From Bryoerythrophyllum caledonicum (lineage: Eukaryota > Streptophyta > Bryopsida > Pottiales > Pottiaceae), in assembly GCA_963971425.1 (NCBI GenBank), contig OZ020525.1:22016187-22080186 (forward strand): a DNA stretch of 64,000 bases, read 5' to 3'. Of the stretch, positions 3,615 through 55,510 are shown one piece after another. The position numbers and the translations under genes were made by a program. Each line of letters opens with the position of its first letter. Position 1 is the first letter of the stretch. The notes beneath the pieces are model-generated. The model ran no database searches. It saw only the letters and a program-made list of their open reading frames with translations, and was not told the DNA's origin.

Positions 3615-4889
3615 TCAAACCTGCGGAGCAGCGCCTTCGCCCAAGCAAACATCGCAGGGAACGGCGCCGGAGCCGTCGCAGTAGGGGCATTTGGCACCCT
3701 CCTCCATCCAGTCCAGGAACTGGTCCTCCACATTCAAGTCTCCCGTGCCTTCACATTCCGTGCACATCATGGCGCCCTCTCCTTTGCACGAGAAGCACTT
3801 CTCCGTCGCCACCACCGCCTTCTGCGCATTCGACGTTGACGATGGCGAGGGCGTCCCGTGTGACTTGGATGATGGCTTTCCCAGTCTGCCGGAATCCTCC
3901 CACCGATTCTCGCCGAGCAAGAACACCCTGCGATTCGGCGCAATGTTGCGAACTTCCGAGCTCTCCACCTCCCTCTTGTCTTCCGCGAACGTCTTCTTCC
4001 TCCCGACGTCGCTTCCCGTGGATGATGGTGCTGATGGCGCGCTCCATGGATCCGACTGGTCGCGTCCGTTACTTGCGCCATTTTGACGCGGTTTGCTCTT
4101 CCCGAACAACGTGGCCAACAGATCCGAAGACGCAATTCCGTCCTCTCGCACACCGATTGACGCCTGCCAGGATTTCACGGCCGTTTCCGTGCCGCTCGAG
4201 AACATGGAGTACTCTATCTCCTCCTCCCCGGAGTAAAACCCTAGCGCCTCCAACGCTTCCTGCAACAGCTTCACCTCGTCCCCTTCCGCGCCTTGGCGCA
4301 GCTCCCGGAACGACACCGCAACGGCCTCGGCGGGCGAATCCGTCATCAAATCGATGGAGAATTCCGACATCGAGGGAATAGAAGGCGGGGGCGACGACAA
4401 GCTGGCTGCAGACGTACCGAACGAGAGGCCACTCGGGCGATCCGAGAGCGACGCAAACTCTTTCTCTTCGACGAATTCAATATTAGGTCGCGGCTCCTCC
4501 ACCGGCAACGCCTGCACCAGCTGCTTCAAGCGAGCCACAACCGATGGCAGCGCCCGCCGCTCCTGCACCTGCTCGCGCAGCTGCTCCACTTCGCGCTTCA
4601 GAAGCGCAAGCTCGTCCGCCATGAGCCGCCGCTCCACATCCCAGCGCGCCTCCTCCCGCACCCACCGCTCCTCCTCGCGCACCCACCGCCGCTCCTCCCG
4701 CAGCCATCGCTCCTCCTCGCCTCCTAAGCTCGCGGAGACGCGGCAGGGAGCCACGCGCGAGCGCAAGCATGGAGGCCGCGCGAACAGCGCCGGCGACGAG
4801 AAATGCAACACCACAGCGGAGTGCGGAAGTCGAGACCAGCCACGAAACGACGACGATGGCAGCTGCAGCGCCGCCTGCGCCTCCATCAC
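3615..4889 (-). CDS. PTAC5: PTAC5-like plastid nucleoid protein (peptidoglycan-binding fold plus DnaJ-type zinc finger)
   Basis: Intronless 424-aa frame. Residues 1-55 are rich in Ser, Ala and Arg and poor in acids, like a chloroplast transit peptide. Residues 56-115 form a charged coiled coil with repeated RW-REE units. Residues 195-263 match a peptidoglycan-binding-like domain (RELRQGAEGDEVKLLQEAL, then GFYSG, then a terminal G-V-R-E-D-G-I). Residues about 365-419 carry four CxxCxGxG motifs (CFSCKGEG, CTECEGTG, CPYCDGSG, CDVCLGEG), the DnaJ cysteine-rich zinc-binding pattern. That domain order matches plastid transcriptionally active chromosome protein 5, which works with the plastid-encoded RNA polymerase. 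Two ATGs are adjacent (4889 and 4886); the upstream one is taken. It is convergent with the CHID1-like gene. Confidence 0.88.
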   Translation of the reverse strand: MMEAQAALQLPSSSFRGWSRLPHSAVVLHFSSPALFARPPCLRSRVAPCRVSASLGGEEERWLREERRWVREEERWVREEARWDVERRLMADELALLKREVEQLREQVQERRALPSVVARLKQLVQALPVEEPRPNIEFVEEKEFASLSDRPSGLSFGTSAASLSSPPPSIPSMSEFSIDLMTDSPAEAVAVSFRELRQGAEGDEVKLLQEALEALGFYSGEEEIEYSMFSSGTETAVKSWQASIGVREDGIASSDLLATLFGKSKPRQNGASNGRDQSDPWSAPSAPSSTGSDVGRKKTFAEDKREVESSEVRNIAPNRRVFLLGENRWEDSGRLGKPSSKSHGTPSPSSTSNAQKAVVATEKCFSCKGEGAMMCTECEGTGDLNVEDQFLDWMEEGAKCPYCDGSGAVPCDVCLGEGAAPQV

Positions 4890-8185: not shown

Positions 8186-8320
8186 TAAGTTATGGCTAGG
8201 TATGGCACCGGTGATAAAACATAGTAGGGAGTAAAACTTAAAAGGAGTTAAGACTTAGATTACACACCAACAAAGGTTATAAGTTAGCGGCAATTATAAC
8301 TTAGTCTAGGGACTACTCTA

Positions 8321-8428
8321 AAAATGGTGGTTAGTGTATCCACACTAATTGGTTTAAAAATGCTATAAGTTTTTACTCTTGATGAATATTTTTACCAAAT
8401 GCCCAATTCAACTATTTCTGGACTATGA
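8321..8428. repeat. Left inverted repeat of the giant element
   Basis: It shares TTAGTGTATCCACACTA, then TGCTATA, then GATGAATATTTTTACC, then AACTATTTCTGGACT with the reverse complement of 26013-26201. The right arm has about 53 extra bases between the last two blocks. A second ATTCTGGACT follows at about 8434. Confidence 0.7.
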
Positions 8429-8619
8429 GGTGAATTCTGGACTAAGGACTAAAAGAAAGATCCGGAGATGTGCCTCATAAATGAGAGTGAAGCGTAAAAG
8501 CCGAGGAGTTTCGAGTACTTTTCAAGCATTAAATGCATCACCAATGACACTTATGAAGGAAGAAATGGCTAGAGCGACCAAATTTGAATTTAGACAATAC
8601 GTGAGTCCGGAACATGCAG

Positions 8620-8805
8620 CCGGATATCTCCGGGTGAAAATCAAAGTGGAAACCAGAAGAAGAACCGAGTCCTGAAGACAGAAATTAATGGACATACTGT
8701 ACATCACAAATGTGTGGTTGAGAAACATGTGGTAGGAAAAAATGGGACAGAGATGCGGACAGAAATTACTCGCAATTGATAGAACATGCAACCGGATATC
8801 TCCGG
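8620..8805. repeat. Left-end palindrome variants CCGGATATCTCCGG (two copies)
   Basis: Copies at 8620-8633 and 8792-8805 each differ from CCGGAGATCTCCGG by the same G-to-T change at position 6. Both are followed by a TGAAAATC/TGAAATC context. A more decayed half-site, CCGGAGATGTGCC, lies at 8462. Confidence 0.75.
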
Positions 8806-8921
8806 ATGAAATCAGAGTAAGAGTCCAGTACTAAACTGTTTCATTATAAGAAAGTGTCATACAAAATATGAAGGGTAGCCGTTGATAAGAGGCGCGTGTA
8901 ATCTACGGAGAATCGAATCAA

Positions 8922-9374
8922 CTATTCTAATTTTAGTGCTTTACAGATGCCCTCTACCCGTCCTGTATGGTGTCTCCCATATGTTAGATAATGAACTATA
9001 GCCTTTCTAGGATTCTTGAATGGATCTAGATCTGCAACAACAACAGATTTAGGCCACAAATAATGCCTTGTTCTAGGATTAAATGAGGCCTTCTTAAAGA
9101 TGTGGAGAAACCTAACATAGCTGGGCCTTCGAGTCTGCTTGCTGGCATAGCAAAAAAGAATATCTGATAAGATGTCTGGGGGCAATAACACTTGGGCCGC
9201 CTCCATGAGCCTCTCTGGACGCATAGGAGACCAGATCCCGACATTGAAATACCGCAGTAGTATTCGAATAACATCTGCGGTGTCATCAAAGGAAGGCAGC
9301 TGCGCGGATCGGGACTTGGCCGAGTCAAGGACCTCGTCCGAGCAGAGAGGACCACGGAGAGATATGATTATGAC
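8922..9374 (-). CDS. Terminal coding exon of an unrecognised protein
   Basis: A good 3' splice site (TTTCGCAG at about 9375) opens a 150-codon phase-0 exon that ends in TAG at 8922. The product begins VIIISLRGPLCSDEV, has Leu- and Arg-rich stretches (VIRILLRYF, DILSDILFCYASK), and ends GICKALKLE. I recognise no domain. Its 5' exon was not resolved. It lies downstream of the FCP1-like stop codon on the same strand, so it may be a separate gene or an alternative 3' end of that transcript. One palindrome (9466) lies about 90 bp upstream in what is probably the intron. Confidence 0.45.
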   Translation of the reverse strand, partial: VIIISLRGPLCSDEVLDSAKSRSAQLPSFDDTADVIRILLRYFNVGIWSPMRPERLMEAAQVLLPPDILSDILFCYASKQTRRPSYVRFLHIFKKASFNPRTRHYLWPKSVVVADLDPFKNPRKAIVHYLTYGRHHTGRVEGICKALKLE

Positions 9375-9465
9375 CTGCGAAATAGATGGCACGACCATAG
9401 AATTAGAAATTGAACATTGAAAAGACGAGAAAATATGGTAGGAGGAACTGAAGTCACATCCTGGA

Positions 9466-9479
9466 CCGGAGATCTCCGG
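9466..9479. repeat. CCGGAGATCTCCGG, exact copy
   Basis: A single exact palindrome in probable intron sequence upstream of the 8922-9374 exon. Confidence 0.85.
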
Positions 9480-9726
9480 GTGCCCCTCCCAGACCAACGT
9501 TCTGCAGTGGAAATGGTCAGGAGAATACTCAATAGAGTTCATAGATATTAAGGGTGAAGTTTGGGGGCGAGACACCAACAATAACAAATAAAATGAAAGA
9601 CCTCAACAAATAACGTTTCTGACAAGGACATTTGTCTTCAAAATTGAAAGGTCAAAATCCGACAGACATTCATGACGAAAAATTTACAAAGCATAGAGTT
9701 AATACTATCCAGTATATTTCATTGTT

Positions 9727-10400
9727 CTAAGGCGCCGAAATTATGCCCATCACCACGGAGCGAGCCTGAGTGGAATTTTTGTCTACTGGATCACTGACAA
9801 ACTTCAATTGATTCCGTCTAACAAAGTCGGGAACATCCTCATTTGACGCTAGTAGTCCGGAGAGCCATGGGAGAAACATGGTGGTCAACCAGGCTTCACC
9901 CGTATTCCCAGTCCATGATGGCGGATGAACTGCGCTGAAGGGATCGTTAAGGATGTTCTTTAGTGGGGTATCGTCCACAAGCAAGACATCCTTAGGAGAT
10001 GTGGGCGACGCTTTGCTATTATAAACTGTCAGGTCCTTTAGGAAAATTGGCTTCTTTGGCTGAGATGGAAGCATATATGATGTTTTTGTGCAATCGGCAT
10101 GTGTCAGGATTTTGGCGCCTTCCGGAATGGTAGCACCTTTCTTGCGCAACTCCTTGATGATATCCACAATATTCTTTTCCAGTACACTGCTCCAGAATGA
10201 GACAGTAGCCTTCTCTCCCACGAAGTTCAGGATTTCAGTGGAACCCGGCCTTACTTTGATGTCTCTCGGTTGTCCCTGTTTAAATTCCCCCCTGTGCACA
10301 AGAACTCCATTTAAGTCAAACACGACATGATAAACCCGTTGTTGTGTTACCTGATCCTCGATTGGAGGCTCTCGGACAATCGTCGTAAACTTCTTCAGAC
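9727..10400 (-). CDS. FCP1/NIF-type HAD phosphatase domain protein, start unresolved
   Basis: A coding exon of about 224 residues ending in TAA. HAD motif I is VVFDLNGVLVHR, where the nucleophile Asp is kept but the second Asp of the usual DxDx(T/V) is Asn. Motif II is in TVSFWSS, the motif III lysine is in PIFLKDLTVY, and motif IV is VLLVDDTPLKN. These fit the FCP1/SCP/NLI-interacting-factor family of Ser/Thr phosphatases, whose members include RNA polymerase II CTD phosphatases. There is no ATG before the catalytic motif. A splice acceptor (GGGTTCAG) precedes 10400 and the exon needs one base from an upstream exon. That could be an unseen first exon or an alternative splice from the ParB-like gene just upstream. 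The DxN change leaves activity uncertain. Confidence 0.7.
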
Positions 10401-10561
10401 CTGAACCCAAAATACGAGTACGTCGGCTGAGATGAGGAACTTGTACAGCTTAGAGAAATTGCAAAGATACATATAAAAGTGTTCCGCACTCAGAACCCAG
10501 AAATGCTGGATGAAAGAATGAGCACTATATAGATGATGGCACGTAAGTATGAATGTCCATA

Positions 10562-13500
10562 TTAGGCACCTAGGACAGTAGGTGTAGTATCCCTAGAAGT
10601 CTGAGCTAAACCAGCCGCTTCAACAGTCTGTGCGAGGCTTCTGCCACCGACATCCTTCGACTGTGTTGATCCAGCCGACACCTGAATACCAGTAATGTAG
10701 TGGTAAGAACACGGTCTGCAGAGAGTGCACTGTCTTGAGAACAATCAAGAAGGTTTGATGGACAAGTAACTGTTCACCTTATCTTTCTGGGCCCTTGTCC
10801 GAACTGTAGGCGGAGGAGGAGGAACTTTCGGCACAGGATTCTTCGCGATTGCCTTCTTCTTCTCTTTCTGAGCCAGCTGCCCGTGGCTCCGTGGAGGGCT
10901 GCGCGGAGGGCTCATAACCTGTAATTCACGCAATGTTTGTTGCGCCGATGCCTCATCCATCGTGTGATCAGTGTCACGCAAAGTCAGGTCCTCGGCAGCC
11001 TTGGACACAACCTCCACTTCAGGACGCGTCGTGGAAGGGTTGTCCAGCGGGAGATCTCCGGGTGCTCTGTGGGTGTGGTCGAACTCCAGGCGATCGGACA
11101 TTGCCGTGTCATCGTCCAGATCTGGCGGAGGAGAACGTTGCCTATCGGAATGCGAACTGGTTTCCATTTGAGAGGGACGCCGTCTACCGTCCAGAGTAGA
11201 GTCGCTTGTTGAACTAGGCGAGGCACGCCTGACAGCAGGATGTGGTTCATCAACGTTTACCTGCAATGGGTCGATTGGGGTGCCTACACCGATGATCCGA
11301 GCGGCTGTAGCCAAGGAATCCAGTCTAAAATTGGGAACCGCTGATGAACTTGGTTCATTCCGCACATCAACATCAAGCATCGTGGCATCAGTCGTCTGCG
11401 TCACATTGACGAAGTCAGTGTGGAATACATTAAGACGCAATACGAAATAAAACGGTATCATACACCCGGAGATCTCCGGTTCAAAGTTGTCCGAGTCTAC
11501 CGGGGGAACTAAAAATAAACATGGCAATGATAAAGACGAGTCCAAAAGAATGGAGGGCATCCGAATGGAATAAACATCCGGAGATCTCCGGGTCGGGTAG
11601 TATCCGTAGGCGTTATACCTCGCCGGTGTAATTCATCCTCGACATAGCCCGTGTTTGAACACCAGCGCCTTGGGTCGACCCAATGATGTCAGTCTCCAGT
11701 AACTCCTCAGGATCGGCGTCGGTAACGTCAGCTAAGATATTCAAGTGGAATTTGAATATTTGTTCTGCGCAGGATTCGGCATTTACTTTGGCATCTTCGC
11801 TGTTCACAATCTCGAGGACCCGCGCGTCGTGAGTCTGCAAACCAAAAAAAAATTAGGACGGCGATATCCAATTCATATAACTGTATGCGGACCGGAAATC
11901 TTAGACATTGGATTGCTTGGGAAGGATGTCTTGCTTACCAAGCCGAGGTATGTAATATGTGGTCCTCCATGAACATTGACGACCACCATACCCTCTCTGA
12001 TGTATCCCGTGAACAGCGAATCCAGGACCGAGATCCTCAGCTGTGGGACACCGGTTTGCTTCCAGCGCTGGATGGTTTCTTTATGTTGAGCGGCTGAAAA
12101 GAAGGCCGGCATTCTTTCGGGGTGGCCTTTGAAGAGCCTCTTGAATGACTGAGCAGGCGTCTCGCTTGAATCGTATTCATACAGGAATACGCAGTATACT
12201 GTCTCCTCGACCCCAATTACTGGAATCGGAAATCCATCACCAGGGTGGGGGAAGTAGTAGACGACATGCGTTGCCCACAATTTTACCTTGCCTCTGGACT
12301 CTCTCTGCCGAAGACTGATGTACCTCTTTAATTCAACGAATCCTGCGACGTCAGTGATAAGAACCGACGGTGATCTGACCCTCGTCCGCCCGTCCTTCGT
12401 GTCCACTTCGAGATGGTCGAAAATGGTTCTGAAGTCAAACACATCTAGCACCTGTGCACGGCATATGTCGTCTTTAACGCTGTAAAGGAAAAAGAAGTAA
12501 AAGTGAGGGTCAGTGACGTTACGCCACTGCTGAATGTCCGGCATGATAAGTACTTCGGCGATCTCGCCCCCTCTGTCAGGCATAACCCTGCAGGTGTATT
12601 TGGAGTCGAACAGGGACGTATCATTCGTGGGTGTGGCCTCGGCAGCATCTTCAATGATGTGTTGACTCCAAATGGACACGAGGAAGTCTGGAGTGGGGTC
12701 GGTATCCTTGTTTATCGCCTTCAGTCGACCCTCAAGCCAAGCTTTACCCTTGGCAGAGTGATTAGCGGCGTCGACCCAGGACTCGAGCTGGACCCTTCCA
12801 ATATTCCTCTCTTCGGCAAATGCGTCCCATTGCTCCTTTGTGTATGGGACGAAGTCAGCAGACTTCGAGGGAAGGGGGTGCGACTTGTATTTAAGCATCA
12901 GTTCATTCTTCATTGCACGGACTCTCTTCTCTCTGTTCGCCGCGTTTTCGAGAGTCTCCGCCTGCCCTTTCATAGTACCTTCGTTTGCCGCTTTGGAGGA
13001 CTTCACACAGACCTTCTTCTCGAGCACTAAATCCGCGAGGTAGTCTAGGTCTTCAGCGCGCATTTTGTAAAGAGGCTTGAAGTCGTTCTGCACCAGAGGT
13101 TTCCGCTTCAGCTTAGCTGGGTCCCCCGTCTTCCCGTTGGAGTCTGGTAAGTCTCCAGCGACGAACAGCCTGTCGATTCGGATCCACTTCTTGACCACCG
13201 CATCATCCATCTCGAATAGAAGTGGGACCTTCGCGTCTTTGGGGTCTGTTTTACCGAGGTGTGTAAAAACCGTTGGCACCACTTGCCGTTGGAACGTCTG
13301 CAATGAATACAGTTACAGGGTGTAAGCAGCCGGAGATCTCCGGATGATTGGTTTGGTTGCTGTGAGGATAGAGCACAGCCACGGAATAAAAAATATTTTC
13401 AGGTTGAGAATGTATATTTACCGAGAATGCGTCAGATTGAGGACGACCATACAGTTGGGGGGCTGGTTTACCGAACTCAAACCACTTCACTCTGCACGTC

Positions 13501-15800
13501 TGCAACTGCTCAGTGAAACTCTGCTCCTTCCGCAAACCCGTCAGATCTTGGTTAAGAGCGCGCGAGAGCTGTAGCAGGGTCATGTCTTTGGGGTCCGGTT
13601 TTGTCCAAACCGGGATGATAGAGAAGTGGGAGATCTCTTCAAGCGTCCACGTTGCTGGCAATTCGTGTGACAGAACCTTGTGCGCCGCCACAGTATGCTG
13701 ACCTCCGATAATGTAAAAGTGTGTTGAGTCCCTCAGGCAGTCCTCCTTCGTCGGCTTGGTCGCGAAAAACTCTACCTTACTTCCTTCAGGTTTCTTCTTC
13801 AGTGGCAGGACTCGAATGTGAATCTCAGGTGCCGTGGCCTTCGAAGACGCGCGAACTGCGTTGATAATTCCTTCAAGCCGTTCTTTCTGGATGCCCCTGT
13901 ATACTAATCCTCCAGGGGGGGCCCGGTGCAGCTTATCGAAATGAATGAGCTTCACGACATCCTTCTTCGTGTCAGGGTCTTCTACTGTCAAAGGCTTATT
14001 ATTGTGTATGTAAACGTTTTTGAACGCGTCGTCGAGTACCTTGCCAATTGCTTCCACTTCAGTCCGCTTCATTTTTGTGAGGTCAACCTGTGTGAAGTTC
14101 AGGCACCTTTCAATCGCGAGGCCTGGCTCATCGGCCTTCGCTTTCTTCCCCTTCTCCGCCCGCGATGAAGATCCTGGGGTCGAAGTCTTCAAGGTGGTCT
14201 TGCGTTTTCTTGCCAAGGTCGATGCTGGTGTCAGAGACAGATTGGGAGTTGCGTCTGGAACGGGCATTCGGGACTTCTCTTGTGCTTCAGCCATCCACTT
14301 CCACTGCTCATTCACGTACTCCGGATACCACGTATCACCCGTTGGAGGGGCAAATAAAAAGTTCTCACTCTGGCAGGTCTCCACCATCTCATCCGAAATC
14401 TTAGATGATTCTAGGATCAAGCCGTATATATGTGGCTCGGTGGAGGAGTCCACGTTCTCCTGGACGATGACGAGACTGACCTCATCATCAAGACCCTGCA
14501 ACTCGAGAACCTGGAGACCAATGTCGGGGTGACCCCGTTTGCCAATCCGAAGCTGAGGGACGAATTCCCAGGCACCGTCATGGGTTTTAATGAGCTTGAT
14601 GCCCCACTGGGTTATGCTCTTTTGGCAATTGTATACGTAGCCGACATTGTGTATCCCTCTGTAGACAAACTCAGGGAGCCAATACTCTACAAATGCCCCA
14701 AGTTTACCGGGTCGACATTCAGTTGGAAGTGTGGTTGTCCACGAATCCCTGCAAGATGATTTTGAAAGAACAAGCAGGCAGTTTAGAATCGATGCAATTG
14801 TCTGGTCAATAACAAGAATCCGAAACAAAATCACCTGACAAGTTCCTAGATATTGAAACCATGAATCGTGCTTCCAAATCTGTATCACAGTGCCAGCAGG
14901 GGACAGTACCCGGAGATCTCCGGCTGATTTGGGGAAGTCGAGTGCATCCGACAAGGAACGAATCCTGGCTACTCTGACGGGTCTATGTCTGACCTGAACC
15001 GGAGATCTCCGGTTAATGACCCCTCAACGCGAATTTCCACTGTTTCGATACGTCCGGAGATCTCCGGATACTTTCGAGAATAACAAACGCCTGTATAGGG
15101 TTAACATATTCATCTGATTGCTACATCAACCGGAGATCTCCGGCTGATTACTGGAACTCCGTATTTTCAGCCGGAGATCTCCGGCAGAAGCACGTACGGC
15201 ACTTCGAAGCACTAATCGGATCATATCAGGACTCGAATATTTACATTCATTTACAGAGAGGTTTGACGTATAACTCTTGAAGTTTGACATACTTAAATAC
15301 CAAGTTACATAATTGAGAACATAAATATATGTATCAAATGAGCTCACACAATTCTGTTATAACTCGACCTTACACACTAGAAGAAGAATCCGCTAATGTT
15401 TCGATGGAACGCCAAATTTGACGACTCTACATGGATTAAACTATATACATTGAATCGAACCAGACTCGGCAGACTCAGTGAGGAACAGCACATTCAAACA
15501 TTCATGGAATTCCAAAATCATTCGCATATTCATGAATAGATATACAAATATGTTCACGGGACAACAAAAAACCAATCGACTATAGCCAAACAGACATCGG
15601 AATTCTAGTACGCATTTCTTGAGGTTTTTCAAAATCATTCAAGTGTTCGTCCACTCCGAAATAATAGAACTAATTCGGAACTCACTCAAAAAAAGGAACC
15701 CCACCTGGTCGCCCGGACTGAGCATAAACAGTTCAATTGTGTATACTTACCGGTTTCCATCCCACGCACTCTCATTCCACGTCCCTGCTGTAGTCGCCAT
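10562..15800 (-). CDS. ParB/sulfiredoxin-fold-like protein, 1229 aa, six exons, intact
   Basis: Exons on the - strand: 15800-15751, 14748-13422, 13297-11939, 11834-11619, 11395-10778 and 10681-10562. All borders are GT/AG, all phases agree, and the sum is 3690 nt. The start is an ATG at 15800 (MATTAGTWNESAWDG) followed by a consensus CG-GTAAGT donor. Residues about 197-222 form a basic, likely nuclear-localising stretch (RKRKTTLK, KGKKAKAD). Around residues 310-400 are IRVLPLKKK and FYIIGGQHTVAAHKVL, the latter resembling the GERRxRAA or DGQHR turn of ParB/Srx-fold proteins, then LSRALNQDLTG. The C-terminal 300 residues are acidic and Pro/Ser-rich with SPPRSPPRSHG. Intron 1 holds five exact palindromes, the intron after exon 2 one, and the intron after exon 4 two. 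Function is unproven; ParB likeness rests on motif resemblance only. Confidence 0.75.
11048..11061. repeat. CGGGAGATCTCCGG, one-mismatch palindrome in coding exon
   Basis: This lies inside exon 5 of the ParB-like gene, where it reads as part of APGDLPLDN. It is one of only two copies found in coding sequence. Confidence 0.7.
11466..11591. repeat. Pair of exact palindromes in an intron
   Basis: Exact copies at 11466-11479 and 11578-11591, both inside the intron 11618-11396 of the ParB-like gene. Confidence 0.85.
13330..13343. repeat. CCGGAGATCTCCGG, exact copy in an intron
   Basis: It lies inside the 124-bp intron 13421-13298 of the ParB-like gene and is followed by ATGATT. Confidence 0.85.
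14910..15184. repeat. Cluster of five exact palindromes in intron 1
   Basis: Copies at 14910-14923, 14999-15012, 15054-15067, 15130-15143 and 15171-15184 within 275 bp, all inside intron 1 of the ParB-like gene. Two are followed by CTGATT on the + strand. The last is preceded by TTCAG, hinting at the opposite orientation. Confidence 0.9.
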
Positions 15801-16740
15801 TTCGCAATCTCCTCCAGTAACTGCTCTGGATTAAAGCGTATACACAACTCTGCAGTACATAAGCATTCAACAACTCAGAACGACAAACTATACAATCTCT
15901 CAAATGCCCTAGAATGTATGGTCCAGTTTTGACATACAGGAATTCGGTGGAACAAATTTCAACACTGCATAAATTGCTCAATTCCGGCCCTTCGAAACTG
16001 AATGCACAGAAAACTAGAACCCTAAACCCTAAACCCTTCTATTTCGCTCGAACGATTATCAACATCAGTACTATTCGACTCTCTCGAACCCTAATGAAGC
16101 TTACCGAACCCTACACCTGCTCCACTGACGATTCTATGAAGTCCAGTGCAAATTCAACTGAAATTTCACTGAAAGCCATTTTTGAGACTTTACATACCTC
16201 TTCACTTGCCGAATCGGCGCACCCGTACGTCGTGGTCGTTCGTGTTGACGCCACCCTTAACCGCAATGTCGTTCACTCTTGGCTACTGAACCTAGGCGCT
16301 CTTCAAATTTCTTCCTAACGCATTCGCTCTCTTTCAATCCTACTCTCTGACCTTCATTCCATATCCAGTTAACAACCTCTCCACGGCACGCTCAATGTCC
16401 CTCACATAAATAAACACTCACCTCGCACACCAACGGCCTCTCACAGCGCATACAAAACTAACCTAATGCGTCGACGCCGACTCCGCAAACCAAGAAAGAA
16501 AACCCCTCCCGCCACTTCCGCTCACTACCTTCGACATTACGAAGACAAAAGCCAAAAAAATCAAGAAATGGTTCATTCTTGGAGTTCCCAAAACCCAAAG
16601 AGGACAAGCTGGACGGCTCAAGGGTGTGACGGCTCATGATGACAGTGGGTGAAGTTAAAAATCAGCTGAAATGACGTACATGTACAACGTGTCCATTTCA
16701 CAATCATGACATTGTCAATGTCGTGAGCATGCGTGAGAAG
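15801..16740 (-). promoter_or_regulatory. Probable promoter/5' region of the ParB-like gene with telo-box motifs
   Basis: This is the sequence upstream of the ATG at 15800. It contains AACCCTAAACCCTAAACCCT at about 16018-16037 and further CGAACCCTA copies at 16086-16114. AAACCCTA (telo-box) is a common element near plant transcription starts. No core promoter was fixed. Open frames here show no recognisable protein. Confidence 0.35.
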
Positions 16741-16849
16741 ACGTATTGATACCCGGTTTCATGGGTATTAGATATGACTATAATAGATACTCGGGTTCAC
16801 CGGGTATTAGAGTAATAATTATACTTGAATTTAAAACGACATTAGTGGA

Positions 16850-18530
16850 AAAGCTGAATCTCCCTTTCCGTTACTCTCCCTCCCTTCTTTCCCTCACTTG
16901 TTTTTCTTATTTTTGTTCTACTCTCCCCTCCTTCTCCATCTCCATCTCTTTTTTAATCTTGATTCTAATATTTTTTAGACTCCCCGTGATTTCAATAATT
17001 ACACATTCTTAAATTAACTTACTACTCTAAAAAAATCCCTTACTCTCCCCCTCTTACTCTTCCTCTCTCTTACTCTCCCTCCCCATATCTTTTTTACATT
17101 TGATTTTATTTTTAGATTCTCCTTATTACATATTCTAAAAATATAAACCACTCTAAAAGTAAATCCCTCAAGTCTCTCTCTCTCTTACTCTCCCTCCCTT
17201 ACTCTCCCTCCTACATGTTTATTTATTTATTTTAGTTTTACTCTCCCCTCCTTCTCAATCTCCATCCTTAGTTAATAATATTGAACTATTGTAATAGTAT
17301 TTTTTAACTATCCTATTCTTTCCCTCACTTATTTTTCTTATTTTTGTTTTACTCTCCCCTCCTTCTCCATCTCCATCTCTTTTTTAATCTTGATTCTAAT
17401 ATTTTTTAGACTCCTCGTGATTTCAATACTTACACATTCTATAATTAACTTACTACTCTAAAAGAATCCCTTACTCTCCCTATTTTACTCTTCCTCGCCC
17501 TTACTCTCCCTCCCCATCTCTTTTTTACATTTGATTTTCTTTTTAGATTCCCCTTATTACATATTCTAAAAATATACACTACTCTAAAAATAAATCCCTC
17601 AAGTCTCTCTCTCTCTTACTCTCCTTTATGTCCCTTCTTTACTCTCCCTCCTACTTGTTTTTTACTTATTTTAGTTTTACTCTTCCCTCCTTCTCCATCT
17701 CCAGCTCTATTTTACTTTTGAATTTTTAAATTTTTGGATTTCTCCTTATTTCAATAAATTCACATTCTAAAAATAATGAACTACTCTTTAAAACAATCCC
17801 GCACTCTTCCTCGCCTACTCTCCCTAGTATCCCTTACTTTCCCTATCCCTTACTCTCCCTCCCTTACTCTCCCTATCCCTCACTCTCCCTCTCCATCTCT
17901 TTTTTACATTTTATTTTATTTTTAGATTCCTCTTATTACATATTCTAAAAATGTAAACTACTCTAAAAGTAAATCCCTCAAGTCTCTCTCTCTCTTACTC
18001 TCCCTCCTACATGTTTATTTATTCATTTTAGTTTTACTCTCCCTTCCTTCTCAATCTCCATCCTTAGTTAATAATATTGAACTATTGTAATAGTATTTTT
18101 TAACTATCCTATTCTTTCCCTCACTTGTTTTTCTTATTTTTGTTTTACTCTCCCCTCTTTCTCCATCTCCATCTCTTTTTTAATCTTGATTCTAATATTT
18201 TTTAGACTCCTCGTGATTTCAATACTTACACATTCTATAATTAACTTACTACTCTAAAAGAATCCCTTACTCTCCCTATTTTACTCTTCCTCGCCCTTAC
18301 TCTCCCTCCCCATCTCTTTTTTACATTTGATTTTCTTTTTAGATTCCCCTTATTACATATTCTAAAAATATAAACTACTCTAAAAATAAATCCCTCAAGT
18401 CTCTCCCTCCCTCCCTAACTCTCCCTCATACTTGTTTATTTATTTATTTTAGTTTTACTCTCCCTATTTTATCTCAATCTCCATCCATAGTTAATAATAT
18501 TGAACTATTGTAATAGTATTTTTTTTTATA
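16850..18530. repeat. Pyrimidine-rich higher-order tandem array
   Basis: Long units built of TTACTCTCCCTCC and CCATCTCTTTTTTA blocks. The marker block TTTTTTAATCTTGATTCTAA recurs at about 16950, 17383 and 18176. A second marker, TTTTTTACATTTGATTTT or close variants, recurs at about 17090, 17522, 17910 and 18320. This gives units of roughly 390-430 bp and composite units near 790 bp. The + strand is almost wholly C/T in the CT tracts. There are no genes and no palindromes. Confidence 0.75.
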
Positions 18531-20314
18531 TCCCATTCTATTACATTATTCAAATTAATGCATAGGTTTCAAAGATATATTCATATTTTATGTAGATTGT
18601 TGTTACCTTTTTTCTTAAATACTTTGTGATATAAAAACTACATGAAAATGGTTGATTTAATGTGTTGCAAACCAAGAGCCAACTCCTAGTCATACTACTA
18701 AAATCATAATTTGCGCAGTAAACCACGGAGTGAACTATCACGTAGTCAACCATGCAGTGAACTACAAAAACGCTACAATCAACGGCGGTGTCAACAATAT
18801 AGTGAACCATTCCACCTTTTACTTTTTAATACTTTTTAATATTATAAATACATAAAAATGGTTGGGCTAATGCATTGCAAAGCAAGCGCCAACAGCTAGT
18901 CTACTCTAAAATTAAATCCATTACCCTCCTTCTAACTAAATTATAATGTATCAAATTAAATAGTTATTGTTCAATTCTCGCTAAATTTCCTTACACTCTA
19001 TAGTATCCAGGTTTTTTTTAAAAGTTATGGTTATGGATAAACTTAAGGTTATAGTTCATAGTTATAAAATATTTTTAATTTATACATTTATAGGTGATAT
19101 AAGCCCTCAACCTTCATGAACTCAGACCCCTCCACGGTGAACCGTGAACCCTGAATCCTTAACCCTAAACCCTAAAACCGTGAACTAGAAACCGTGAACC
19201 CTAAACCCTACACCGTGAAAACCATGAACCCTAAACCCTAAACCCTAAAACCCTGATGCACAATCCAGCCTGAACACGGAAGCTGTACCCGAATTCATAG
19301 GACCGGGTTGCTGTACTTCTAAAAGCATCTGCTCAGTTATTTGTGCACGTTTCTTCTCAAGCATCCATATAACTTCTGTCGAACTAGGCAATATTGGAGA
19401 TTATTCTAATTGGTAACGAACGCCGATGTTCTACTTGAGTCTTGTATTGCCTGATGAACAATACTAGTAGGCAGCTGAGGGCCGTCTCCTTTCCTTGGGT
19501 AGGGTATAATTTACTTAACAAAGGTGAGTACGAGAAGTCCTGTACGATTACATTTTACTGTGATTTAGTCTAAGACGTGATACGGCCCTAGTATATTCAA
19601 AGATACATCATGGGGCATACTTCATCATCCGTTTTCAAATTTGCAGCACTCTAGGAACTAGATGGTATCCTTACAATACGGTCATCCCATGAGTACGAGC
19701 CTTTCATTATCATGAGTGGAATGTGGCCTCGATCGTGGGCACGTCGAAGAATGCGCACAATCATGATGGTGTACAGCAGTTAGTTTGAAGGAGCATGCAT
19801 GCCCAAGATTCGTTTCAAATTTGAGCGCCTGAATTTTCCCTCCACGAGGTGATGGAAAGGTGGATAAGAGTATCCTTCAACTCAGCTCTCCTCCTTTTTT
19901 GCTCAGGATGTTTGAGATACTATGGGAGCTGAGCGAGTCAGTGACAGTGTTCGCTTGTGCGACATCGTGCTAGATAACTGTAGGGAAATGAATCGACATT
20001 ATTCCAGGAATGTTAAGTATGTTCCCTCGTATAATTCCGTATTCGCTGTCTGTCTGTAAGGATTGGTGATGTTTGTGTTGCATTCTGTCCTCTGAGTCGA
20101 TCGGGAGCTCTCGAGTAGAGATTTTAAACTAATTCGTCTCCGAAGATACAGTCATAGCCCTGAAGCAGTAAATATATTCGACTCGAGTATATAGATGACG
20201 TAATTTCTTGGCGTGTGAATCCGAACTGTTAACCGGGTTATGCAACTGTATCACACCGCCATACCCGCGAATATTCCGTACGGCTGTTGATTCGATCAAG
20301 GCCAAAAAACTGAA
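18531..20314. other. Non-coding centre of the giant element
   Basis: No supported gene. It is AT-rich up to about 19080, then a telomere-like patch, then unique-looking sequence that may hold the 5' exon and promoter of the right-arm transposase candidate. No good first exon could be fixed. Confidence 0.4.
19130..19260. repeat. Degenerate interstitial telomere-like repeats
   Basis: Repeated CCCTAAACCCTAAA units alternate with ACCGTGAACC segments over about 130 bp. CCCTAAA is the usual plant telomere unit, here degenerate and internal. Confidence 0.65.
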
Positions 20315-20525
20315 CCGGAGATCTCCGGCTGTTCATGCCGTGCTATTCTGGATTCTGCCAATCTCGCCCGGTAACCACGGAATCCCCCCTTTGATTCCAG
20401 TGGCTGTCAAAATCATCGAAAGCAGGATTCCCGGAGATCTCCGGCTACTTCTGTTTTGTTCTCTCTCAAAATCAAACAAGAAGTCGTCGTTGTCGATCAT
20501 TATCCACTCTGCCGGAGATCTCCGG
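20315..20525. repeat. Three exact palindromes upstream of the transposase candidate
   Basis: Copies at 20315-20328, 20431-20444 and 20512-20525, each followed by CT(G/A)T or CTAC. They lie 5' of a strong splice acceptor (ATTTCTCATTCAG at about 20594), so they may sit in a leader intron, as in the ParB-like gene. Confidence 0.88.
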
Positions 20526-20623
20526 CTATCCCTGACGAGGATATTGAGGTTGGTCATCCAAATCGACTCTACATACACACAATTTCTCATTCAGGACATC
20601 AGCCACCAACCGAGATTCCACCG

Positions 20624-23600
20624 ATGCAGCACGGGACTATGTCTGACTCAGATTGGTGGGAGAGTGACTCGGAAGACCTTGCCATGGTCGCAGCTCAGTG
20701 CTCCGATTCTGGACATGTGAATTTCACGGAAGAAGATGATCCATCCCAGGAGTCTACAGGAAGATCGGAGGTCCTGTGGTCAGGAATGTCCGTGAACCTT
20801 ATGAGGCCAGGTTCAGGCGAAATTGGAGAAGCGTCCATTGTTGAGGTTCACCCCATTGGTCAATGGCTTGGAATTGACATACCAGTCGGATCTAGTGAGT
20901 TCGTATTACTTAGACCAACGGCCATATGCCCCGCGGCGGAAGAATTACCACTCATTCCCTTGCAACGCGGATACGATTCATTTATTCACACACTCCGGCG
21001 GACCGTTTTATGGAGAAGGGCAGATGTCATGATTCCAACCGGAGATCTCCGGTCCGACGAGTCCCTATTCGTACCACGAGAGCGATGGGTTGGACTTGAA
21101 GTGCAGCGGTTGGACGGAGATGGGTTGGTGCTCTGCTCTGGGAGAATCATGGCCGCTTTCCCAGCAGACCATTTCCGAAGTGGATGTTTGGGAGAAGATA
21201 ATATTGGTGTAACTGTCCTTGATGTTTTTGTGGGAGACACGGAGAGAATTATGAGTCATGAGTCGTGGCCCATTCTTGAATGTTGTTTTCCTTCCGGTCG
21301 TTCATTGAAATGCACAATTGATCATTTCGCATCCCTGCCCTTACAACCAGATTCTGGCGCTCATTTGGGGGGTCGTGCGAAGGAGCCTTACCGCTTCATT
21401 TCCCGACAGCAAGACCTTAACAAGAAGGAATCCTTGTACACCAAGAAGACTACCGACGACGAAATTCGCAAAGTCAGCTCGGAAAGGTGCTGTCCCAAAC
21501 GATGCTGCCAGTATTTTCAACAATCCCAGACTCTTTCTGTTAGACAGAAATTCTATGACAAATCCTTTGAAGATAGAAAGGAGTATGCGATCTCGGTAGG
21601 TGGGCAGTTCCACTCCATTGATGGGGACCGGAAGAGAAAGTACGTCACGCTCTTGGGATCGGAGGTTTGCTCCGTTGCATCGTACACGATCCATGGAATT
21701 CGGAAGTCGACGTTTCACACGTACATCGCACATTTCAGTAGAGGAATCATTAATGCAACTCACGGTAACAAGGGCATCAAGCGCCCACGGCTTGCCACTA
21801 TACAGGCGATGGGCTCAATGACGTCGATTATTAATGACAACGCGGATCAAATGCCTCACCAAATGCGGAGTGTCGGGAATGGTCGGATTGATACTCTCAA
21901 GTATCTTCCTGCGGGAAACAACTGGAAGCAAATTCGAGCCAGCGTCAATGATGTACGTTATCAGTCCCCGCATATTGCAATGGATTTGTACTCTCCTTGC
22001 TCCGTCGACCGATGTCCAAGTATCTTAACCGGAGATCTCCGGCTGGGTCATCGTTGTTCTGCATTGACCTTCAATTGATTTACTCTGTACTTCGCACCGT
22101 CTGTTGGATTGTACTTCTAAATTTTTCCTCTCACTAGGTTAATTTTTCATTTTGCAGACAAACGACTCCTACGGTCTCCCTCCAGTAAGTCAGTCCACAG
22201 TTAATAGGGTAAGGAAGGAATTCTTCGGGAATGTTGCTATTAAGCCGTCTGGAAGCACCTTCGCAAAATGCAGTACTTGCGATGAGTTCAATCAGTTCTT
22301 ACTGACAACTCCTAAGGGTACGCCCGCATACGAGCTCTTCTATAGCAACAGGCAAGCTCATTTGAATCACCAACAATCATGCCGGAAGCTTTACGCGACA
22401 TGGAGGGAGGAGTCGAAGGCGAAGCCGCTGACCTTTCTCTGTGTCATTCACGACAAGATGGACACTGCGAAGACGGCCCTTCCACGCATGTGGAGGACTA
22501 CTAAGGCGACATCTGGTCTCGGACAGCTTCCCATGAATGTCACCGGAATGGTGGCTCACGGTCATGTCGACGGAGCGTATGCTCACTATGCTCCTGCTTT
22601 ATGGCCGGGAGATTCGAACGCCACCATATCCTCTCTAGCAAAACTTTTTAGGCGGCTTGAGGGAGCACCATTACATGAGACGCGCGCGCTCTTCGAGCAC
22701 CCTCCTCCAAACTCGATGTTCACGGCGCTCATGAGGGGAAAGAGCAGGTGTGTCGACGCTTTAGAGCCCGTGGAACCCAGTGCTTTTAAGGGACCGAAAC
22801 CGTTGCCACCGAAATTGTTTCTATAGCTCGACAACTCAGCGAAGGACAACAAGAACCAGTACTTGATGGCATTCTTATCACTGCTAACTGCTCGAGGTGT
22901 TTTCAAGGAGATACAGGTTGGCTTCTTGGTTGTCAGACATACGCATGAAGATATTGATGATTACTTTAGTCATCTATCGAAAGAACTGAAGAAAAGCAGT
23001 ACATATATTCTAGCGGATTTGATAAAGGCATTCATGAAGTCACAGAAACTAGCCTTCATGCCGGAAGTTATCCAAGAGGTGGCCGACTTTAAATCTTACG
23101 TCGATGGCTTTTTATGCAGTGGGGCGGCACGTCTGGTGGGACTTAGTGATATGCATCTTTTCAAGTTCTACGTTGACAATGATGGTGTTCCGGTCATGAA
23201 GTTCAAGAAGTCTGCCGTTGACGCAGAGTGGTTGCCGATGAACAGAGAGCCGATAAAACTCTGGAAGGTAGATGACAGCGGACGTCCCATGCTTCCAACA
23301 GGCTCTCCGAAGCCCGTCCCTTTCAAGCCCATATGGGGTAATGAGGAGCAGAACCCGGTCGGAAACCAAGATGTTGCCAGAGACAAGGCCAGAAAAGCGA
23401 CGGAGAACAAAAACTTCATTAAGACGGGGCTTCGGAAGTACGTGGACTACTGGGCGTCTGGAATGTCAAAGTACGCAGGTTACGCAGACTCCATCCGCCC
23501 ATACCTGCAGTACTGGAGGGACGTCATCGACGAGCTTGACAAGCCACTTCCACAGACGCCCTCCGAGCTCGAAGAGGGATTCTGGCCAGCCCATGATTGG

Positions 23601-24095
23601 AGAGGTCCTCATGAGGGAGGTGAAAATCCGCTAGGATCGCTTCCACAACCATTGGATGTCACCCCCGAAGATGAGGTTCTCGAGCCTTACTATGGACCCG
23701 CCAATGAAGCCCCAAAGTCCACATTTAATCCTTGGCGTGATATTCGTCTCGGGTCCTGGATTTTAGTTAGACCTAGTGATCCAGACATCTATCCTGTTTG
23801 GCAGGGTAGAGCAGTTTCGGACGTCGTCAGGGATGAGGGTAATGTCAACCATGGAAAATTCCTCGTTAAGTATTGGGAGCCTGATAACAAGCAGAAGAAT
23901 CTGAAGCGGAAGTACCAGGACTGTTGGGAAGCCACTTGGGTTCCAGACCAAAAGAAGCCTGTATGGTGTCATGTGAGTTCTGTTTTGTTTGCGACTTGGT
24001 CTAGCAAAGTTAACCAACTCACGAGATCCATTCCACGTAAAATGAAGGAAGCAGCGCTTGTGAACTTAGAGAAAGCGAATGCCGCTGACCCTTGA
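20624..24095 (+). CDS. RNase H-like transposase candidate (DUF7869-type), interrupted by one in-frame TAG
   Basis: Two exons: 20624-21952 and 22158-24095, phase 0, 1088 codons. Exon 1 has an acidic start, a CCPKRCCQ cysteine cluster and a region (KFYDKSFEDRKEY, EVCSVASYTIHGIRKSTF, THGNKG) that I associate with proteins carrying DUF7869. Exon 2 has a CSTCDEFN motif. It then has three acidic blocks spaced like a DDE/D catalytic core: CVIHDKMDTAKT (about 541-549), LDNSAKDNKN (667-676) and HTHEDIDDYFS (703-713). TAG at 22824-22826 precedes the second block, where Gln fits (KLFL-x-LDNS), consistent with CAG to TAG. The bases TTGTTTCTATAG also resemble a 3' splice site, so splicing there cannot be excluded. 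The start is chosen at the first in-frame ATG after a splice acceptor; an upstream exon may exist. The stop is TGA. Confidence 0.65.
21039..21052. repeat. CCGGAGATCTCCGG, exact copy inside coding sequence
   Basis: In frame in exon 1 of the transposase candidate, read as part of PTGDLRSD. It is the only exact copy in a coding exon. Confidence 0.85.
22029..22042. repeat. CCGGAGATCTCCGG, exact copy in an intron
   Basis: It lies inside the 205-bp intron 21953-22157 of the transposase candidate and is followed by CTGGG. Confidence 0.88.
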
Positions 24096-25061
24096 TCCGG
24101 TGATCAGTCCCAATACCTAGAATTCTGTTCTGTGAAATTCAGTTTCTGAAAAATCTCGTCGAGTCTCTTCGACCTCACGGAGGAGCACCGGAGATCTCCG
24201 GCTGTGAAGACTATTATTTTCTGGTCCAGAGTTCGACATCCCTCCAATCAGCTCTCGCCACTTTTCGTGAAGAGAATCGGATTTGCGCTCTTCCATTCAC
24301 TGTTACTAGGATACATTGAGTAGTGACACAATTATTATTGACTGGTCTTTTCCACCGGAATATTTTCAGACCCGCATATCTCATAGGACGCTTACCAGAG
24401 ATCTCCGGGTATGGAAGACAAATTTCGTGGTCAGACGAATGTTCATGTATTGCCTTGTTCAAGTGGGTGAGATCTAGCCGGAGATCTCCGGATACGAGAT
24501 TCACATCTACCATTCTTATCAATGGAGTCCACATTTCCCAATTTTGAGCTTCCCTAGGTGTTCTGAATATTATTGAATCATATCCGGAGATCTTCTGTGA
24601 CTACGATACTGCAATTTCTCTATCAATGGAACTTGTTTCAAAATGACAGAGACCTTTTTGGCATTCTCCTGGCTGGTTCCTTCTTTGATTTATGACATGC
24701 CACTGCTAATATGAAAGTGGGCGGTCAATTACACAGTTAATATCAGTCATCCGAGTTCTTTCATTTGATTGAACTGATGCTGATGGTTGGCGGCGGAGAT
24801 TGTACTTCTCACATCTCATTATCACAGGACGTTTCACGCGTGGCCTACCATGTTGTTCGTTCATGAATTTGGCATCTGCCATTAAGTCCATCAGTCTGGG
24901 TGTTATGGCGACTTAAATCAATGTACCTACGCTCGAGAAGTGTAGTTAGTGGGTTGGTGGGGAGGATTGTATAAGAGAGGGTTCAGGGATGCAGTAATCC
25001 ATATGTTTTGTCTTTCAACCATAAGTCTTGTTAGGCCATAGCCACAGTGGAGAGAGAGGAG
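24096..25061. other. Spacer between the two right-arm genes
   Basis: No supported gene. It holds the 3' flank of the transposase candidate, the palindrome group at 24188-24597 and the promoter of the small acidic-protein gene. Confidence 0.45.
24188..24597. repeat. Four palindromes of mixed quality 3' of the transposase candidate
   Basis: Exact copies at 24188-24201 and 24478-24491, a one-mismatch copy CCAGAGATCTCCGG at 24395-24408, and a decayed copy CCGGAGATCTTCTG at 24584-24597. Confidence 0.8.
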
Positions 25062-25499
25062 ATGGCTTTCGGAAGTAGAAAGAGGGAGAGGGATGTCTCT
25101 GATTCGGTAGATAGGAGAGTTTCACGAAGGATGGTGAGCGAGGCTCAGGGTTCGGAGAAGGGAAGACTGCTTTTCTTACAAGTCGAGTACAGAAGGGCGA
25201 TCTGTTCCGATCGGCGTGTTCTAGACGAATTGGAGGATGACGCTGAGAGCAAGTTTGTTCAAGAGGAGGACTACGGCATCGACTGTGATGCAGAGGACGA
25301 GAAGCACATCGACTCCGATGTGGAAGAGACCCTTGATAGAGCTGCTTCGGTTGAAGAAGAGGTGGAGGACGACCCCTGGTATGAAGACGAGGAGGAATCT
25401 TCTTCGGATGGTGGCTGCAGCCCATTTCAAACTGGGTGTGACACAGGGTCTAATGTCGATTCGGACATGTACGCACCGGCTCACTGGAAGGATCTTTAG
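25062..25499 (+). CDS. Small acidic protein of unknown function, 145 aa
   Basis: Single frame from ATG 25062 to TAG 25499, with no other ATG close upstream. The N-terminal 40 residues are basic (GSRKRERDVSD, RRVSRRM). Residues 60-130 are strongly acidic (DELEDDAESK, EDDPWYEDEEESSSDGG). I recognise no domain. It has the same orientation as the transposase candidate and is the last gene before the right inverted repeat. The basic head and acidic tail suggest a nuclear accessory protein, but that is inference. Confidence 0.55.
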   Translation: MAFGSRKRERDVSDSVDRRVSRRMVSEAQGSEKGRLLFLQVEYRRAICSDRRVLDELEDDAESKFVQEEDYGIDCDAEDEKHIDSDVEETLDRAASVEEEVEDDPWYEDEEESSSDGGCSPFQTGCDTGSNVDSDMYAPAHWKDL

Positions 25500-25685
25500 A
25501 GCTCTTCAGAGAGGTTGTGCAAGGATAGAATTTGTTGTTAGATCCACGAATTTTGCTCAGACCAGTCATTGCTTTTTCCTACATTTGGTCTTGTATCAAA
25601 CGCATTTGTAAAGAGACTTCATTCCAGAGTAGCATTGTCGTTTTTGAACAGCCGAGCAATTATATTTTTAGTACTTTTCTTTCGA

Positions 25686-25936
25686 CCGGATATCTCCGGA
25701 TGTCTGAACGGCATTCCTTGCATGTCAATGCTTCAAGCTCTGAAATGCACTGTACTCATCTTCTACACAATATTACCACAGAAATGTACAGTACACCATA
25801 TTACATGGTTGTTTTATAAATGTGTTAGCTTGAAAGTTGTTATCATTTTGTCGATCACGGCGAACGAAATTTCACGCTTGTTTTATCACTATATTCGATT
25901 AGTCATGTATCACTGAAACCATCCGGAGATATCCGG
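25686..25936. repeat. Right-end palindrome variants, mutually inverted
   Basis: 25686-25699 is CCGGATATCTCCGG, the same variant as the left end. 25923-25936 is CCGGAGATATCCGG, its exact reverse complement, so the outermost right site is the mirror image of the outermost left sites. Confidence 0.8.
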
Positions 25937-26012
25937 CTGAATGAATAAAATAAATTAACTGGGTATCCCTTTCATATTCTTTGGTGCGACTATTTTACGA
26001 GACTAAAATCCT

Positions 26013-26201
26013 TCTTCCTTATTTCTGGACTTTGCAAAGTCCAGAAATAGTTAAATACAGCATCCAACTATGTCTACAATGATCCGGCTCTTTCAATAGT
26101 ATGGATAATTGTGCTATTGGTAAAAATATTCATCAAAAGTAAAAAACTATAGCACATCCAAATCATATACAATAGTGTGGATACACTAAACATCACTTTC
26201 A
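26013..26201. repeat. Right inverted repeat of the giant element
   Basis: On the - strand it reads TTTAGTGTATCCACACTA, TGCTATAG, GATGAATATTTTTACC and finally AACTATTTCTGGACT, in the same order as the left end. Confidence 0.7.
26020..26049. repeat. Perfect 30-bp palindrome
   Basis: The arms TATTTCTGGACTTTG and CAAAGTCCAGAAATA are exact complements with no spacer. The left terminus has only a direct repeat of TTCTGGACT at the matching place. Confidence 0.85.
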
Positions 26202-26324
26202 ACGTATTATACTTTGACACATATTCATGAAAATTTTGAGAAATTGATGATCAAAACTAAGATCGTAGGAACCCACCTAATAGGGTAAATGTCCTCTGAG
26301 GAAGAAATGGTCCTTTCAAGTTAA

Positions 26325-55189: not shown

Positions 55190-55510
55190 AATCTCGGCCT
55201 GCCCAGGTTTAACACCACCGGCCCTCCCTACGCTCGTTCTCCCAGGACATTGCGTGATATCGGGACCCAGACCCAACTAAGCGTCTCACAAATCTCTATC
55301 TCACAAATCCCGGCCTGCCCCGGTTTGACACCACCGGCCCTCCCTACGCTCGCTCTCCCAGGACATTGCGTGATATCGGGACCCAGACCCAACTAAGCGA
55401 CTCACAAATCTCTCTATCTCACAAATCCCGGCCTGCCCCGGTTTGACACCACCGGCCCTCCCTACGCTCGCTCTCCCAGGACATTGCGTGATATCGGGCC
55501 CCAGACCCAT
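55190..55510. repeat. Three tandem copies of a 116-118-bp unit
   Basis: The unit runs ATCTCACAAATC-CGGCCTGCCC, GGTTT-ACACCACCGGCCCTC, CTCCCAGGACATTGCGTGAT and ATCGGG-CCCAGACCCAACTAAGCG. The GCCC(C/A)GGTTT block recurs at 55201, 55317 and 55435. A partial inverted copy, GATATCACACAATGTCC, lies at about 55577. Confidence 0.85.

What the first reader, a model, noticed from the sequence alone, without database searches (positions are those of the whole stretch)
8321..26201. A ~17.9 kb candidate giant DNA transposon of an apparently undescribed type
Inverted repeats at the two ends share four ordered blocks (TTAGTGTATCCACACTA, TGCTATA, GATGAATATTTTTACC, AACTATTTCTGGACT). Everything between them carries a private 14-bp palindrome family, a large RNase H-like transposase candidate and at least three accessory genes arranged divergently. 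Seen directly: the repeats, palindromes and open frames. Inference: that they form one mobile unit.
Basis: partly seen in the sequence, partly recalled or inferred. Interest (0 to 1): 0.9.

Follow-up and report, generated by a model that had tools for sequence, protein, structure and literature searches.

The report
Giant plant transposon with ParB-like protein
A 17.7-kilobase cut-and-paste transposon, present in many near-identical copies in one plant genome, carries a bacterial-type ParB-like protein and its own private set of DNA palindromes, which together look like a self-marking system; the outer repeats first thought to be its ends belong to a small older transposon it landed in.

Summary
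The transposon is real but its ends were misread. The element is 8399-26063 (17,665 bp), not 8321-26201. The three outer blocks are two halves of a ~220-bp MITE into which it jumped; MITE copies elsewhere show the empty site. Exact 4-bp target duplications flank 21 of 22 other copies tested, plus the window (CCAA). The 40 best-scoring copies of the inner left end (window included; 299 candidates) are 98-100% identical. The plus strand encodes a DUF7869 transposase with an RNase H-like model and conserved D-D-D positions. The minus strand carries a large multi-exon gene whose model contains a ParB/sulfiredoxin-type domain, and a NIF-phosphatase-like gene. The palindrome is private and position-coded: 16 perfect inner copies, 4 subterminal copies of one variant, none outside in the window; genome-wide 2718 and 663, against controls of 3 and 0. 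Closest known: the 21.5-kb Sola1-1 of Ectocarpus (opposite-strand ParB-like/methyltransferase protein). Verdict: new variant of a known kind, probably Sola1-like. Binding of the palindromes by the ParB-like protein is inferred, not shown.

The parts
8399..26063 (.). Complete giant transposon, 17,665 bp
   Evidence: Boundaries from 22 other copies and from pairwise homology limits
8399..8427 (+). Left terminal inverted repeat (starts ATGC)
   Evidence: (I7)
26035..26063 (-). Right terminal inverted repeat (ends GCAT); overlaps a 28-bp palindrome at 26021-26048
   Evidence: (I7)
8395..8398 (.). Left copy of 4-bp target-site duplication CCAA
26064..26067 (.). Right copy of 4-bp target-site duplication CCAA
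8316..8398 (+). Left part of the interrupted ~220-bp MITE (flanked by TA at 8314-8315)
26064..26204 (+). Right part of the interrupted MITE (flanked by TA at 26205-26206)
20624..21952 (+). Transposase exon 1 (gene model; start codon assumed)
   Evidence: dN/dS 0.21-0.31 against copies B and D
21953..22157 (+). Transposase intron (GT-AG, phase 0, predicted by eye), holds a palindrome at 22029
22158..24095 (+). Transposase exon 2: DUF7869 / RNase H-like catalytic domain and a C-terminal small barrel. In-frame TAG at 22824-22826 in this copy
   Evidence: Pfam; homologues; structure; dN/dS 0.14-0.16 (B, D)
13422..14748 (-). ParB-like gene, exon holding the ParB/Srx-type domain (model residues 251-393, about 13569-13997). 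Start of gene not fixed
11939..13297 (-). ParB-like gene, next exon (by eye resembles a degenerate DNA methyltransferase; not supported by any profile)
   Evidence: dN/dS 0.15-0.24 (B, D)
11619..11834 (-). ParB-like gene, further exon
   Evidence: dN/dS 0.46-0.53 (B, D)
10745..11395 (-). ParB-like gene, last exon, low-complexity C-terminus
   Evidence: dN/dS 0.38-0.52 (B, D)
9727..10449 (-). NLI-interacting-factor-like (FCP1/SCP-type) phosphatase-like ORF; motif reads DLNGV
   Evidence: PF03031 E 7.8e-13; motif in W, A, B, D
8922..9404 (-). Small ORF of unknown family
   Evidence: dN/dS 0.22-0.40 (B, D)
25062..25499 (+). Small acidic ORF of unknown family
   Evidence: dN/dS 0.31-0.39 (B, D); one frameshift in B
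8620..8805 (+). Left subterminal palindromes, variant CCGGATATCTCCGG, at 8620 and 8792
25686..25936 (.). Right subterminal palindromes, variant CCGGATATCTCCGG, at 25686 (+) and 25923 (-)
14910..15184 (.). Five perfect palindromes CCGGAGATCTCCGG upstream of the ParB-like gene model (14910, 14999, 15054, 15130, 15171)
20315..20525 (.). Three perfect palindromes upstream of the transposase gene (20315, 20431, 20512)
11466..13343 (.). Perfect palindromes inside predicted ParB-gene introns (11466, 11578, 13330)
21039..22042 (.). Perfect palindromes in the transposase gene: 21039 (exon 1) and 22029 (intron)
24188..24491 (.). Perfect palindromes downstream of the transposase gene (24188, 24478)
9466..9479 (.). 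Perfect palindrome between the small ORF and the phosphatase-like ORF

Best explanation
This is a recently active, 17.7-kb cut-and-paste DNA transposon, most likely of the Sola1 kind. SHOWN: defined ends (ATGC...GCAT, about 29-bp terminal inverted repeats), 4-bp target duplications, many near-identical copies, insertion into a pre-existing MITE, and signs of purifying selection on its two large genes. INFERRED: the DUF7869 protein cuts at the ends and inserts with a 4-bp stagger, using an RNase H-like D-D-D site. INFERRED: the large opposite-strand protein, part of which models as a ParB/sulfiredoxin fold, is loaded on the private palindromes in the element's promoters and introns, much as bacterial ParB loads at parS, and coats or marks the element so that its genes stay expressed (an anti-silencing role comparable to VANC of Arabidopsis VANDAL elements). 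INFERRED: the four subterminal variant sites serve a separate task at the ends (transposase assembly or marking of the ends). The phosphatase-like gene looks like an acquired passenger or regulator.
Confidence: 0.6

Rival explanations
1. The palindromes are binding sites of the transposase (or a transposase partner), as with subterminal repeats of other plant transposons; the ParB-like protein does something else.
For: Two variant sites lie within 500 bp of each tip in the window, and sites of that variant are found there in 29 left and 20 right ends; the right end also has a 28-bp palindrome.
Against: Most palindromes (16 of 20) are internal, many in promoter regions and introns, where a transposase would risk assembling on the wrong sites (inference); the end sites are a distinct variant.
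Confidence: 0.25
2. The ParB-like protein is a DNA-modifying enzyme (ParB plus methyltransferase, as proposed for Ectocarpus Sola1-1) and the inner palindromes, which contain GATC and two CCGG, are its substrates; the subterminal variant, which lacks GATC, escapes.
For: Published precedent (PMC12477816); GATC present in the perfect form and absent from the variant (seen directly); by eye the exon 11939-13297 has methyltransferase-like spacing.
Against: No methyltransferase profile matches that exon in Pfam, PHROGs or NCBIfam; the DPPY-type motif (recalled) is not present by eye.
Confidence: 0.15
3. The palindromes are sites of a host factor (repressor, chromatin mark or replication) and are conserved for that reason.
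For: No binding protein has been shown.
Against: The 50 listed places (of 2718) all fall in four element clusters, and none lies in the flanks held for 29 left and 20 right ends.
Confidence: 0.1
4. One reading: all four blocks 8321-8428 and their mates are one long terminal repeat of the giant element.
For: Collinear inverted blocks.
Against: The giant copies A and B and 20 others have different DNA right outside ATGC...GCAT; the outer blocks make ~220-bp MITEs elsewhere and those span the junction.
Confidence: 0.01

Closest known systems
Sola1-1_Ec32, 21.5-kb giant Sola1 transposon of Ectocarpus (PMC12477816; passages and part 1 of section 5 seen)
   Same: Giant size, transposase on one strand, and on the other strand a large protein (1104 residues there, at least 1184 here) with a ParB-like domain; 4-bp TSD is given for Sola in PMC10741241 (passage seen)
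   Different: That protein has a DNA methyltransferase domain, which no profile finds here; 'palindrom' has 0 hits in the main text (supplements not seen); brown alga, not a plant; here there is also a phosphatase-like gene. No sequence comparison was possible.
Sola1 elements of the moss Physcomitrella (named in PMC9033089 table and PMC10741241 text, passages seen)
   Same: 4-bp TSD; P. patens encodes a DUF7869 protein 47% identical to this transposase (P0003)
   Different: Most Sola elements are given as 2-9 kb, some over 15 kb; whether P0003 belongs to the named Sola1 family was not tested
VANDAL/VANC anti-silencing system of Arabidopsis (PMC5735166, passages seen)
   Same: Element-encoded protein recognises a short motif enriched in its own element, mainly in non-coding regions, including introns and upstream DNA
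   Different: Non-palindromic nine-base motif arrayed in tandem repeats; no relation of the proteins was tested; here function is inferred only
Bacterial ParB-parS
   Same: ParB/Srx fold by model comparison and a dispersed palindrome
   Different: No parS-like binding shown; the motif reads GGQHT, not the recalled bacterial GERR; a DNA-binding helix-turn-helix was not tested

Membership tests
Sola (Sola1) DNA transposons | 4-bp target-site duplication | tested here: met
   21 of 22 other copies exact, plus window
Sola (Sola1) DNA transposons | Terminal inverted repeats | tested here: met
   29 bp, 83% (I7)
Sola (Sola1) DNA transposons | DDD-type RNase H transposase | tested here: inconclusive
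   Conserved D115/D118, D241, D281 and RNase H-like model with middling Z; catalytic role not shown
Sola (Sola1) DNA transposons | Transposase sequence similarity to named Sola1 proteins | not testable with these tools
   No Sola reference sequences or profile held; Pfam calls it DUF7869
CMC/Chapaev and other 4-bp-TSD groups (TSD lengths recalled) | Transposase similarity | not testable with these tools
   No reference profile beyond Pfam
KDZ giant transposons | KDZ transposase domain | tested here: inconclusive
   Pfam scan of the three transposase ORF pieces listed DUF7869 (two pieces, one of them below the curated cut-off) and one sub-threshold unrelated hit; absence of a hit is weak evidence
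ParB/sulfiredoxin superfamily | ParB N-terminal (ParB/Srx) fold | tested here: met
ParB/sulfiredoxin superfamily | Curated sequence profile match | tested here: inconclusive
   Pfam and NCBIfam: none for the window exon; one relative matches a ParB-like PHROG at E 0.04
ParB/sulfiredoxin superfamily | CTP binding and specific palindrome (parS) binding | not tested
   needs bench work
N6-adenine/N4-cytosine DNA methyltransferase | Profile match of exon 11939-13297 | tested here: inconclusive
   0 families in Pfam at E<=1 (ORF 11873-13312), PHROGs and NCBIfam at E<=10
NIF/FCP1-type phosphatase | Pfam gathering score | tested here: met
   48.9 bits vs 21.8
NIF/FCP1-type phosphatase | DxDx(T/V) catalytic motif (recalled) | tested here: not met
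   DLNGV in window, A, B and D: phosphatase-like, perhaps inactive
Stowaway-like (Tc1/mariner) MITE (name recalled), for the outer repeats | Short, TA-flanked, inverted repeats, many copies | tested here: met
   ~220 bp; TA at both ends in 4 of 5 MITEs read by eye and in the window; 50 matches from 40 scored of 2154 first-look candidates

The most novel reading that the evidence does not exclude
A plant transposon carries its own parS-like division of labour: a ParB-fold clamp protein loaded on about 16 private inner palindromes in its promoters and introns to keep 17.7 kb of foreign DNA expressed, while a near-palindromic variant of the same site, kept only within 500 bp of each tip, marks the ends for the transposase. 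It would be a eukaryotic mobile element using a bacterial-type spreading clamp as an anti-silencing device, with a two-letter address code.
Probability: 0.3. Interest if true: 0.85.

Novelty: new variant of a known kind. Interest (0 to 1): 0.62.

Why it matters
ParB-like proteins inside eukaryotic transposons have been noted (PMC12477816), where self-binding is proposed; a target site was not named in the text seen. Here a candidate target is visible: a private, conserved, position-coded palindrome. That makes the proposed self-recognition of giant transposons directly testable by simple DNA-binding and methylation assays, in a family with copies 98-100% identical over the stretch tested, so mobile now or recently. 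It also gives a family of DUF7869 transposons with exact ends and target duplications, which ties a 'domain of unknown function' to transposition.

Tried and rejected
Rejected: outer blocks as ends of the giant element. Rejected: a chance pairing of two separate MITEs, because each side holds only one arm and the joined flanks restore one contiguous MITE. Uninformative: sequence search of solved structures with the phosphatase-like ORF (none), the ParB-like family (one match at E 0.41, a histone) and the transposase family (none); plain Foldseek (nothing at E<=0.001); viral contigs with the last 422 residues of the transposase (none); phage and plasmid tblastn with exon 11939-13297 (4 phage records at E 5-9, no plasmid). 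No Sola structure is known to me, so could not show one; families missing from that list are not excluded. A homologue search with the joined ParB-like protein gave none; the exon alone gave 7. Not answered: attempts to search the own genome with the transposase protein, the exon 11939-13297 protein and PF01555. The methyltransferase resemblance is by eye only.

Rows left out: copy D was left out of the TSD count because its left tip is missing; partial copy C because its left tip was not found. Of the 30 left-end loci, one is the window (L023), one is copy A (L030), 20 were paired with right ends, and 8 (L045-L052) have none. L037 was skipped for lack of an exact tip string; that call counts only exact matches of either form, and its 29 left ends include the window and copy A. 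dN/dS values come from three related copies and a simple counting method. One search scored only the 40 best of 299 candidates, so its 98-100% is a property of the best copies; B and D are older.

Palindrome conservation was first counted on sites chosen in the window (A 19, B 18, D 15 of 20), which is biased; one search repeats it with sites chosen in a third copy. Literature: 'DUF7869' 0 papers, the palindrome string 0 papers; ParB plus transposon terms (8 papers listed) gave only PMC12477816 as relevant by title and listing; ParB/Sola/moss/palindrome terms matched 137 papers, of which 10 were listed. The founding Sola paper, the catalytic-domain survey and the red-alga paper are not held.
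Full report
WHAT WAS CHECKED. The window is part of a 437-Mb assembly (contig C14).

THE ENDS. Copies with the same palindrome spacing were found through and fetched. Homology to the window began at 8399 in copy A and 8396 in B (8472 in D, whose left tip is missing) and ended at 26063-26071 in four copies. In A and B the next bases outside differ, and a 4-bp direct repeat flanks ATGC...GCAT. Twenty more copies, with right ends, were then tested: in all, 21 of 22 copies (A and B included) have an exact 4-bp target duplication, with varied sequences (TTAG, GTAT, GCCA, ATAT, TAAC and others); the remaining one differs at its left tip. The window's is CCAA. The element is therefore 8399-26063, 17,665 bp, with terminal repeats of about 29 bp.

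THE OUTER BLOCKS. The sequence 8312-8398 has many relatives: 50 matches from 40 scored of 2154 first-look candidates. Several pair with an inverted mate about 135 bp away. Five such MITEs were read; the joined window flanks with one CCAA removed align across the junction to all five, best 222 bp at 87.8%. TA dinucleotides flank four of the five by eye, and the window pair. The giant element thus sits inside a TA-flanked MITE, and the MITE family supplies the empty site.

COPIES AND AGE. The 40 copies scored for 8430-9200, the window among them and the best of 299 candidates, are 98-100% identical. Copy A is about 98% identical over the element, B about 93%, D 86-93%. The perfect palindrome occurs 2718 times in the genome against 3 for the reversed control, the variant 663 times (364 + 299) against 0. 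Divided by 16 and 4 sites per element, both give about 170 element equivalents, an estimate of roughly 3 Mb.

PALINDROMES. Twenty exact copies lie in the window, all inside the element. Sixteen are perfect; the four nearest the ends are one variant. In 29 left and 20 right ends, counting exact matches only, 53 of 53 and 34 of 34 sites within 500 bp of the tip are the variant, 26 of 26 and 10 of 10 inner sites are perfect, and none lies outside. Flanks extend the symmetry: T at the second position (32 of 40) and G at the third (24 of 40) on both sides, so the full site is about CANCCGGAGATCTCCGGNTG. Nineteen of 20 lie outside the modelled coding exons: five upstream of the ParB-like gene model, three upstream of the transposase, four in predicted introns. 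Sites chosen in copy D are identical between window and B at 13 of 15 against 0.41 expected; chosen in B, window against D 13 of 19 against 0.28; three further such tests and two CpG-matched ones agree. They are conserved beyond their surroundings, though not perfectly.

HOW IT PROBABLY WORKS. Transposition with a 4-bp staggered insertion is strongly supported; that the DUF7869 protein does it is very likely but inferred. The tie between the ParB-like protein and the palindromes is inference: the fold is one that in bacteria loads on dispersed palindromes (recalled); the palindromes are private, conserved and placed in likely regulatory DNA; VANC proteins of Arabidopsis show that plant transposons can use such a scheme to resist silencing (PMC5735166, passages).

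WHAT IS KNOWN. The Ectocarpus paper (PMC12477816; [quoted passage not shown] Sola elements encode a DDD transposase, make 4-bp duplications, sometimes exceed 15 kb and occur in Physcomitrella (PMC10741241, PMC9033089; passages). Our element fits, but no Sola sequence could be compared, so membership is probable, not proven. New here, as far as the searches show: the palindrome family with its position code, the land-plant host of such a ParB-bearing element, the phosphatase-like gene and the exact ends.

Noticed in passing
49367-51432 (+): Split piggyBac-like transposase (PF13843) outside the element
   Followed up: no
31895-32704 (-): DDE_1 (pogo/Tc1-type) transposase fragment
   Followed up: no
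8314-8398 and 26064-26206: Abundant TA-flanked ~220-bp MITE family with ~85-bp imperfect inverted repeats, its two arms diverged from each other
   Followed up: partly
16757-18524 and 19138-19256: Inside the element, between the divergent genes: ~430-bp tandem repeats rich in CTCTCCC and a degenerate AAACCCT telomere-like array; the repeat region is shared with copies A, B and D with rearrangements
   Followed up: partly
26021-26048: 28-bp perfect palindrome at the right end of the element (hairpin potential), not mirrored at the left end
   Followed up: no
3615-4889 (-): Plant-like gene combining peptidoglycan-binding-like and DnaJ/BSD2-type zinc-finger domains
   Followed up: no
55176-55509: 116-bp tandem repeat, 2.9 copies, just downstream of the poly(A) polymerase gene
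   Followed up: no
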